From positions 1 to 64,000 of the forward strand of contig JADZBD010000004.1 in the NCBI GenBank assembly GCA_020852255.1: a stretch of 64,000 nt of DNA, read 5' to 3'. Shown one piece after another: positions 55,283 through 55,487 of the stretch (positions are counted from its first letter, which is position 1; every line of letters starts with the position of its first letter). The notes under the pieces are model-generated. The model did no database searches. It had not been told where the DNA came from and was given only the letters and a program-made list of their open reading frames with translations. The position numbers and the translations under genes were made by a program. The DNA comes from Bacteroidia bacterium. Its GTDB lineage: Bacteria; Bacteroidota; Bacteroidia; JADZBD01.

Positions 55283-55290
55283 TATCTTTA
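55283..55290 (+). promoter_or_regulatory. Promoter -7 element of the tRNA-Cys unit
   Basis: TATCTTTA, fitting TAnnTTTA, seven bases after the stop of the 54443 gene. A perfect six-base inverted repeat, CCCTTT/AAAGGG, lies at the expected start point (55294-55306). Confidence 0.55.
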
Positions 55291-55304
55291 CGTCCCTTTA
55301 AAAG

Positions 55305-55368
55305 GGTCCTGTAGTCCGCCGTGGCGGATGGGCAGAGCAGTAAAGCTCTCTAAAAAATCTCAAATATT
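55305..55368 (+). pseudogene. tRNA-like relic upstream of tRNA-Cys
   Basis: This 64-base stretch begins with the same ten bases as the tRNA-Cys gene (GGTCCTGTAG) and also shares GGCAGAGC and AAAGCTC with it. In place of the D-arm is a perfect hairpin (TCCGCC-GT-GGCGGA, 55315-55328). The anticodon-like stem AGAGC/GCTCT closes a six-base loop, not seven, and the T-arm and 3' acceptor strand are missing. It looks like a tandem copy of tRNA-Cys with an internal deletion. It would be transcribed with the real tRNA and may be inert or processed. Confidence 0.6.
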
Positions 55369-55439
55369 GGTCCTGTAGCCGAGAGGTTAGGCAGAGCTCT
55401 GCAAAAGCTCCTACACCAGTTCGAATCTGGTCGGGACCT
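55369..55439 (+). tRNA. tRNA-Cys (anticodon GCA)
   Basis: A full cloverleaf of 71 bases. The acceptor is GGTCCTG/CGGGACC with one G-T pair, followed by T8-A9. The D-arm is GCC/GGC. The anticodon arm is GAGCT-CTGCAAA-AGCTC with GCA at 55401-55403. The T-arm is ACCAG-TTCGAAT-CTGGT. CCA is not encoded. Confidence 0.95.
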
Positions 55440-55459
55440 CAATATATCAATGAACGATG

Positions 55460-55487
55460 AAAGCGCTTTTGGGCGCTTTTATCATTT
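55460..55487 (+). terminator. Terminator after tRNA-Cys
   Basis: AAAGCGC (55460-55466) pairs with GCGCTTT (55473-55479) around a six-base loop, then a T-rich tail. Confidence 0.8.

What the first reader, a model, noticed from the sequence alone, without database searches (positions are those of the whole stretch)
55283..55487. tRNA-like relic in tandem with tRNA-Cys
A 64-base element copies the first ten bases, the centre and the 3' flank of tRNA-Cys, but has a perfect TCCGCC/GGCGGA hairpin as D-arm and no T-arm. It lies between the tRNA promoter and the mature tRNA, so each tRNA-Cys transcript would carry it. It could be inert, aid processing, or release a small RNA.
Basis: seen in the sequence. 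Interest (0 to 1): 0.55.

Follow-up and report, generated by a model that had tools for sequence, protein, structure and literature searches.

The report
Hairpin-scarred tRNA copy beside tRNA-Cys
Just before its cysteine tRNA gene this bacterium carries a broken copy of that gene with a small DNA hairpin lodged in it; the same kind of scar sits beside many other tRNA genes in related bacteria, which points to an undescribed small mobile element that nests in tRNA genes.

Summary
The element is real: 55305-55368 holds the first ten bases of tRNA-Cys, a perfect TCCGCC-GT-GGCGGA hairpin where the D-arm should be, an anticodon-arm-like hairpin, no T-arm, then the intact tRNA-Cys (55369-55440). The claimed copy of the tRNA's 3' flank is not better than chance.

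It is not a lone relic. Similar interrupted copies precede tRNA-Cys in other Bacteroidota, and in the window's own genome lie beside Met, Gly, Val (twice), Ser, Ala and His tRNAs. Of 22 Cys and Val copies found without asking for a hairpin, 18 carry one (2.8 expected). Upstream copies keep the 5' part; downstream ones end with the 3' part. Some hairpins are dispersed repeats. Two congeners share one identical tRNA-Val copy with different hairpins, so the hairpin is exchanged as a unit. In four of five genomes small GIY-YIG nuclease genes sit in the same places (15 in 85 kb around tRNAs, none in 800 kb sampled elsewhere), 10 of 15 next to a displaced tRNA fragment.

Best reading: a scar of REP-like hairpin insertion into a spare, partial tRNA copy; transcribed as leader, probably inert. 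The driver (GIY-YIG nuclease, RAYT or replication error) is not shown. My ten literature searches found no description of it.

The parts
55283..55290 (+). promoter -7-like box TATCTTTA (Bacteroidota TAnnTTTG consensus recalled, one mismatch); transcription expected to start just after it
   Evidence: placement of the exact box examined for 139 tRNAs
55305..55314 (+). relic, 5' part: GGTCCTGTAG, identical to tRNA-Cys bases 1-10
55315..55328 (+). inserted palindrome TCCGCC-GT-GGCGGA in place of the D-arm
55329..55349 (+). relic, middle part: TGGGCAGAGC-AGTAAA-GCTCT, with an anticodon-arm-like hairpin (55334-55338 with 55345-55349)
55345..55368 (+). A-rich spacer before the tRNA, with GCTCTCTAAAAAAT resembling a boxA antitermination sequence (E. 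coli boxA recalled); overlaps the arm above; no T-arm
55369..55440 (+). intact tRNA-Cys(GCA)
55456..55483 (+). intrinsic-terminator-like hairpin with T-run after the tRNA

Best explanation
The element is the scar of a REP-like hairpin (palindrome) lodged in a spare, partial, tandem copy of the tRNA-Cys gene, next to an intact copy that keeps the cell alive. Shown: the architecture; its recurrence beside many tRNAs in Bacteroidota; upstream copies keep the tRNA 5' part and downstream copies end with the 3' part; inserts sit in the tRNA arms; some of the palindromes are dispersed repeats or are shared between relics of different tRNAs in one genome; in one orthologous pair one palindrome has been exchanged for another in an otherwise identical relic. 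Inferred: hairpin insertion and partial duplication arise together (for example by repair at a cut or stalled tRNA gene, the intact copy coming from an uninterrupted sister), because a hairpin in a single-copy tRNA would be lethal. Inferred: the relic is transcribed in the pre-tRNA leader, removed by 5' processing, and has no selected role. Which enzyme moves the hairpins is open; small GIY-YIG nuclease genes are the most conspicuous partners at other tRNAs, but none is in this window.
For: Recurrence: 10 of 13 GTDB loci with the pattern are Bacteroidota tRNA-Cys with such a copy (the other 3 hold no tRNA). Own genome: copies upstream of Cys, Met, Gly, Val-gac, Val-tac and Ser-gct, downstream of Ala and His, that is 8 of 35 ARAGORN calls, one of the 35 being itself a relic. 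Shared hairpins in the own genome: TCCGCC type in Cys, Met and Gly relics, CCTGTCTGGCGAC type in Ser and His relics, GCCTATAC type in both Val relics. Coupling: 18 of 22 distinct Cys and Val copies found without requiring a hairpin have perfect arms of 6 bp or more, 2.8 expected from shuffles; the units are not all independent. Interrupted-copy detector: 34 rows (3 repeat one locus) for 152 tRNA entries, against 13 of 7940 non-cognate tests. Dispersed repeats: TCCCGATAGCTATCGGGA has 8-26 copies in 8 of 16 distinct genomes (9 of 17 handles), reversed control 0; the G145 double hairpin has 12 copies, 8 within 200 bp of a tRNA, a zone of 0.35% of the genome. Exchange: congeners G145 and G175 share an identical Val relic (34 of 34 bases outside the palindrome; 184 of 201 aligned columns in the 200 nt before it) with different palindromes. 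G001 lacks the Cys relic.
Against: The own genome has no Y1/RAYT match, and its TCCGCC hairpin is only weakly repetitive (10 sites with varied loops, reversed control 0), so mobility is not shown in this genome. The 18-bp palindrome is mostly away from tRNAs: 2 of the 13 listed G145 copies lie within 200 bp of one. In G000 the excess of such palindromes near tRNAs is modest (2 in 22 kb against 6 in 400 kb). The window spacer is not a detectable copy of the leader (1116 of 2000 shuffles as good), so the duplication step is inferred from other loci (Gly, Ser, Met). Copies without an inserted palindrome exist (G354; 4 of 22 lack perfect 6-bp arms; one of two G399 tRNA-Met units). The hairpin stayed perfect while neighbouring parts decayed, which selection could also explain. 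No expression data.
Confidence: 0.62

Rival explanations
1. Functional leader. The hairpins and the boxA-like stretch act on transcription or processing of the tRNA-Cys precursor, or the relic's GGUCCUG competes with the tRNA's own 5' strand for the 3' acceptor strand and so tunes folding.
For: Promoter-like boxes lie before the relics, not between relic and tRNA. The predicted fold of the joint transcript pairs relic GGUCCUG with the tRNA 3' end (MFE -48.3). The relic folds better than shuffles (z -2.5). A hairpin followed by CTCTCTAAAAAAT or a close variant precedes tRNA-Cys in L016, L018 and L057 too.
Against: Rare and scattered: 6 of 395 class genomes match the hairpin-spacer-tRNA-Cys pattern, two of them (G335, G113) not examined, and the other genome of the same family lacks the relic. 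Copies lie also downstream of tRNAs and beside many isotypes. In one pair of congeners the hairpin was swapped for an unrelated one.
Confidence: 0.15
2. Driver variant: small GIY-YIG nucleases cut tRNA genes in the arms, and repair inserts hairpins or the nuclease gene itself while a partial copy restores the tRNA (homing-like). The window relic is an ORF-less product.
For: 15 GIY-YIG ORFs in 85 kb around tRNAs of five genomes (G000 4, G145 7, G001 3, G399 1, G403 0), 0 in 800 kb of background from G145 and G000 (the HMM was built from six such ORFs, which match PF01541); all 15 on the tRNA's strand; 10 of 15 have a tRNA fragment on the far side. The nuclease ORFs at the orthologous Val locus of two congeners are only 40/95 identical.
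Against: No GIY-YIG ORF in this window; none at tRNAs of G403 although it has three tandem Cys units; none in six Cys-relic loci of the class search (L013, the window itself, included); and the two found in ten GTDB Cys-relic loci lie over 2 kb from the tRNA, so such ORFs also occur elsewhere. None near eleven loci of dispersed palindromes. 5 of 15 lack a far fragment. No cleavage data.
Confidence: 0.35
3. RAYT (Y1 transposase) moves the palindromes as REPs, and relics are merely tolerated landing sites.
For: Palindromes are short, dispersed and stem-conserved with varied loops; Y1_Tnp present in 8 of 9 genomes tested, weakly in G403 and G399.
Against: No match in the own genome; no GTAG or CGTC tag common to the inserts (the GTAG before the window hairpin is tRNA sequence); does not by itself explain the coupled partial duplication.
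Confidence: 0.25
4. Ordinary decayed tandem duplicate or attachment-site fragment of an integrative element, the hairpin being a chance or decay product.
For: Partial tRNA copies from element integration are common (PMC9897764, passages read).
Against: Hairpins occur in 18 of 22 units against 2.8 expected; upstream copies keep the 5' part with no kilobase-size element between copy and tRNA; hairpin swapped between congeners.
Confidence: 0.06

Closest known systems
REP / REPIN palindromes and RAYT transposases (PMC3116915, PMC3733652; passages read)
   Same: short GC-rich palindromes, dispersed, stems conserved while loops vary
   Different: these sit inside partial tRNA copies, one was exchanged at a fixed site, they share no GTAG/CGTC tag, and the window's genome has no Y1 transposase match; the passages I saw do not name tRNA genes as hosts
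GC clusters of yeast mitochondria (PMC4478555, passages read); double-hairpin elements and the Neurospora palindromes are recalled
   Same: mobile GC hairpins that merge and shuffle at homologous sites, differences between species in the loops; that paper cites a proposal that intron endonucleases move them, while itself leaning to RNA-mediated copying
   Different: bacterial chromosome, nesting in tRNA copies, and no target-site duplication seen here, whereas GC clusters have short flanking repeats
tRNA gene fragments left by integrative elements (PMC9897764, passages read)
   Different: there the copies flank a kilobase-size island; here 64 bp, with a hairpin inside the partial copy and no integrase
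GIY-YIG homing endonucleases (PMC1564403, passages read; phage T4 SegB in a tRNA cluster is recalled)
   Same: free-standing GIY-YIG ORFs next to tRNA genes, differing between congeners at one locus
   Different: 10 of 15 are paired with a displaced tRNA fragment; the solved relatives found by sequence for one of them are UPF0213 proteins 1zg2 and 1ywl
Rickettsia palindromic elements (recalled; mentioned in a PMC3733652 passage)
   Same: palindromes inserted inside genes
   Different: no insertion in partial tRNA copies is known to me; not compared by sequence

Membership tests
REP / REPIN with RAYT | short palindrome present in many dispersed copies | tested here: inconclusive
   Met for TCCCGATAGCTATCGGGA in related genomes (8-26 copies); the window palindrome type has only 10 sites with varied loops in the own genome
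REP / REPIN with RAYT | RAYT (Y1_Tnp) gene in the genome | tested here: not met
   0 matches in G000; matches in 8 of 9 genomes tested
REP / REPIN with RAYT | GTAG or CGTC tag beside the hairpin | tested here: not met
   GTAG before the window hairpin is tRNA bases 7-10; other inserts follow other tetranucleotides
Integrative element attachment-site fragment | partial tRNA copy at the far end of a kilobase-size element with integrase | tested here: not met
   copy lies directly before the intact tRNA with no ORF of 60 aa or more between them
Free-standing homing endonuclease locus | endonuclease ORF inserted at the target | tested here: not met
   no GIY-YIG ORF in the window; GIY-YIG ORFs lie at 15 other tRNA loci
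Free-standing homing endonuclease locus | cleavage of the uninterrupted target | not testable with these tools
   needs purified protein
Known Rfam RNA family | match above gathering score | tested here: not met
   only tRNA-Cys matched in the window
Rickettsia palindromic elements | sequence similarity to the described element families | not tested
   no reference sequences were compared

The most novel reading that the evidence does not exclude
tRNA genes of Bacteroidota host a homing-like system: small GIY-YIG nucleases cut tRNA genes within the arms, and the break is healed by inserting a hairpin cassette or the nuclease gene while a partial duplication rebuilds the tRNA. Hairpin cassettes then shuffle among sites. 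It would be a chromosomal, bacterial counterpart of mitochondrial GC clusters, with the proposed endonuclease partner visible beside the scars.
Probability: 0.33. Interest if true: 0.85.

Novelty: new variant of a known kind. Interest (0 to 1): 0.7.

Why it matters
tRNA genes are treated as stable anchors for integration of large elements. Here they look like nests for tiny hairpins and nuclease genes that break a spare copy while an intact one is kept. If hairpin insertion and partial duplication are one event, it is a new way for a parasite to enter an essential single-copy gene. It also makes the old question of how small palindromes move directly testable, because a candidate nuclease, its target and its scars lie side by side in some genomes. 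For annotation it explains odd tRNA pseudogene calls (for example the low-scoring tRNA-Phe call at G000:C21:36892, which is a tRNA-Ala copy with a hairpin).

Tried and rejected
A copy of the tRNA 3' flank in the spacer: rejected. A chance palindrome: disfavoured. Presence in the only other genome of the family: no. Target-site duplication by the hairpin: not seen; tRNA bases run on across the insert with losses of 0 to about 12 bases. Nine listed dispersed-palindrome loci (two are the same place) show no clear flanking duplication: best match of a 20-nt flank within 300 nt was 14 of 20, without a control. A GIY-YIG gene in the window: none. An alignment of the Cys locus between G145 and G175 and within genus g43 was uninformative, as the flanks do not align. 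A strict rule that downstream copies hold only the 3' part: broken by L049 (downstream copies that begin with the 5' part, the last one an interrupted copy that ends with the 3' part) and by the near-complete downstream copy in L207. Paper searches that found no description of hairpin-interrupted partial tRNA copies: (titles, abstract starts and counts seen), with passages read; no paper was read whole. Weak or doubtful rows kept in the counts: at least L125 and the L176 downstream row may be chance, and the insert that the L083 row reports has no palindrome, although the tRNA-His copy has a hairpin further on. Val-gac scored 11.0 against a non-cognate maximum of 14.5; its hairpin is imperfect. 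The Leu-cag copy is too decayed and was not counted.

Only 6 regions of G399 (10 tRNAs, of 56 matches) were examined. Rarity figures come from exact patterns and are lower bounds. The GIY-YIG HMM was built from six ORFs, several of which lie in the scanned loci. The 18 relic-bearing tRNAs were picked by hand.

Full report
What is there. The window lies in a genome of 3.28 Mb in 28 contigs (G000:C4:1-64000); that it is Bacteroidota is inferred from its relatives. It holds one tRNA, tRNA-Cys(GCA), at 55369-55440. The 64 bases before it read GGTCCTGTAG (identical to tRNA bases 1-10), TCCGCCGTGGCGGA (a perfect hairpin), T, GGGCAGAGC-AGTAAA-GCTCT (an arm like the anticodon arm), and CTAAAAAATCTCAAATATT. 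Folded alone the relic forms the two hairpins (-19.1 kcal/mol, z -2.5); folded with the tRNA, its GGUCCUG pairs with the tRNA 3' end in the predicted minimum. The tRNA is more similar to its own upstream flank (12.5) than to any of the other 34 flanks (at most 8.5). The claim that the spacer copies the tRNA's 3' flank fails (957 and 640 of 2000 shuffles as good). A promoter-like box with one mismatch lies before the relic. In 16 of 18 relic-bearing tRNAs chosen by me the exact box lies before the relic, in none between relic and tRNA; only 52 of 121 other tRNAs have it within 40 nt, so this is moderate evidence that the relic is part of the tRNA-Cys transcript.

It recurs at tRNA-Cys. A search of 395 genomes of the class found matches in 216, a few extending upstream of the tRNA. 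Reading these gave copies with other hairpins in G145 and G363, a longer and less regular one in G134, a decayed one without an inserted palindrome in G354, and two tandem units in G316. One scan of GTDB species contigs for two tRNA-Cys starts 41-101 bases apart gave 13 loci: 10 are Bacteroidota tRNA-Cys with an interrupted copy before it, and 3 contain no tRNA. The hairpins differ: TCCGCCGCGGCGGA, TCCCGATAGCTATCGGGA, TCCGTCAGCTGACGGA, TCTCGGTTAAACCGAGA and others. The only other genome held of the same family, G001, has no relic at tRNA-Cys. By exact pattern 6 of 395 class genomes show a hairpin-spacer-tRNA-Cys arrangement, two of them not examined, so it is uncommon and patchy.

It recurs at other tRNAs. 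Of the window genome's 10 TCCGCC-GGCGGA sites (reversed control 0), one is this relic, one is in a second relic before tRNA-Met, and one is inside the RNase P RNA (RF00010, 238 bits). Reading the flanks of the genome's tRNAs (positions) showed interrupted copies of the cognate tRNA upstream of Cys, Met, Gly, Val-gac, Val-tac and Ser-gct; the Gly and Ser copies come as tandem units whose spacer is repeated as well. Downstream copies follow Ala and His. Within this genome the Cys, Met and Gly relics share the TCCGCC type of hairpin, the Ser and His relics a CCTGTCTGGCGAC type, and the two Val relics a GCCTATAC type. The same survey of G145, G403, G001 and part of G399 (139 tRNAs in all, positions) found many in G145, several in G399, a few in G001, and in G403 clearly only tRNA-Cys (three tandem units).

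Anatomy. A script that looks for a tRNA copy interrupted by an insert, without asking for a hairpin, gave 34 rows for 152 tRNA entries (three rows repeat one locus); non-cognate tests passed the threshold 13 times in 7940. Twenty-four of the 34 inserts contain perfect arms of at least 6 bp; for 20 of 34 the palindrome is better than in 95% of shuffles. Upstream copies keep the tRNA 5' part and carry the insert after t9 to t36 (D or anticodon arm). Downstream copies end with the tRNA 3' part and carry it in the anticodon or T arm. L049 and L207 show that downstream copies may also hold the 5' part. In G145 a 39-41 bp double hairpin is inserted at several sites with no tRNA base lost. Among 22 distinct Cys and Val copies found by patterns that do not mention a hairpin, 18 have perfect arms of 6 or more against 2.8 expected from shuffles; two of the other four have TCCGCC...GGCGGA ends with a long loop, one has 5-bp arms, one is degenerate. 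The units are partly related to each other. Duplication and hairpin thus look coupled.

The hairpin is a unit that moves or is exchanged. TCCCGATAGCTATCGGGA occurs 8-26 times in 8 of 16 distinct genomes tested and never reversed. In G145 only 2 of its 13 listed copies are within 200 bp of a tRNA (binomial 9e-4), but of the 12 copies of the double hairpin 8 are, a zone that is 0.35% of the genome (binomial 1e-17; tandem copies are not independent). Palindromes of this style occur 12 times in 21 kb around G145 tRNAs and 3 times in 400 kb of background; in G000 the contrast is weaker, 2 in 22 kb against 6 in 400 kb. The clearest case is tRNA-Val in the congeners G145 and G175: the 200 nt before the relic match in 184 of 201 columns, the relic is identical in all 34 bases outside the hairpin, including a shared change and a shared spacer, but the hairpin is TCCCGATAGCTATCGGGA in one and TCCGCCGCGGCGGA in the other; G175 also has a further relic unit. 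Stepwise mutation cannot easily give this; replacement of the cassette can.

GIY-YIG nuclease genes share the sites. Six ORFs next to tRNAs match PF01541 (E 2e-10 to 1e-17). With a profile built from these six, 15 ORFs were found in 85 kb of tRNA neighbourhoods of five genomes (G000 4, G145 7, G001 3, G399 1, G403 0) and none in 400 kb each of G145 and G000 background. All 15 are on the tRNA's strand, and 10 of 15 have a fragment of the same tRNA on the far side of the ORF. Examples: in G000 tRNA-Ala, then the ORF, whose last residues are coded by the D-arm of a tRNA-Ala copy, whose anticodon arm is replaced by TCCCGCGTGAAACGCGGGA; in G145 tRNA-Val, then the ORF, then t40-t76 with TCCGCCGCGGCGGA in the T arm, then a terminator with a similar hairpin in its loop. 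The ORFs at the orthologous Val locus of G145 and G175 are only 40/95 identical, while that of G175 is 62/84 identical to that of G256, another genus. Against a general role: there is no such ORF in the window or near eleven loci of dispersed palindromes, and two found in GTDB Cys-relic loci lie over 2 kb from the tRNA.

How it most likely works. Shown: an interrupted partial copy beside an intact tRNA, recurrent, on both sides, with a hairpin that was exchanged in one orthologous pair. Inferred: hairpin insertion into a single-copy tRNA would be lethal, so what survives are cases in which the intact gene was rebuilt beside the broken one, for example by joining an interrupted and an uninterrupted sister copy. 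The relic is then transcribed in the leader and discarded. Possible drivers are a GIY-YIG nuclease, a RAYT (no match in this genome) or hairpin-induced template switching; none is demonstrated. A function for the leader cannot be excluded, but the patchy occurrence, the downstream counterparts and the swapped hairpin speak against it.

Known kinds. It works like REP palindromes and like the GC clusters of mitochondria, for which merging and shuffling at homologous sites is described and involvement of endonucleases has been proposed (PMC4478555, passages read). It is not filed as a REP/RAYT member, because the own genome lacks the transposase match and the tag. It is not an attachment-site fragment of an integrative element (PMC9897764, passages read), since no element lies between the copies. 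In ten searches of the paper library I found no description of hairpin-interrupted partial tRNA copies or of their pairing with GIY-YIG genes; most subscription papers are outside that library.

Noticed in passing
L008 1418-1808 (G000:C18 near 63534): The RNase P RNA of the window's genome carries TCCGCCTTTGGCGGA in one helix and two similar GC hairpins ending in TTTGGCGGA in others, as if the same palindrome had entered several helix tips.
   Followed up: partly
L260, L258, L201, L209, L264, L265, L269, L270, L276: Small GIY-YIG nuclease ORFs lie directly beside tRNA genes on the same strand, followed by a displaced fragment of the same tRNA; in L086 and L201 the end of the ORF is coded by the tRNA fragment or the hairpin.
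   Followed up: yes
L211 2125-2562 (G172): A tRNA-Val(gac)-like gene truncated in the T loop runs straight into a GIY-YIG ORF, and a promoter-like copy and a second start of the same tRNA follow, as if the nuclease gene had captured the tRNA promoter.
   Followed up: partly
L209 1970-2015 and L063 around 1500: Palindromes of the same type sit in the loop of a terminator-like hairpin or between the arms of another inverted repeat, suggesting a preference for hairpin loops in general.
   Followed up: no
window 55345-55358; G145 loci L103, L108, L109, L114, L116: Leaders of these tRNAs carry a boxA-like stretch (GTTCTTT or GCTCTCTAAAA) just before the tRNA or the relic (boxA recalled).
   Followed up: no
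L049, 72-380 bases after the start of tRNA-Cys: Beyond its upstream relics this locus has a downstream array of tRNA-Cys copies, the last one interrupted at least twice and complete at its 3' end.
   Followed up: partly
L198 (G145:C1 near 1398200): A long run of tandem ttaggag heptamers lies upstream of the tRNA-Arg(tct) relic.
   Followed up: no
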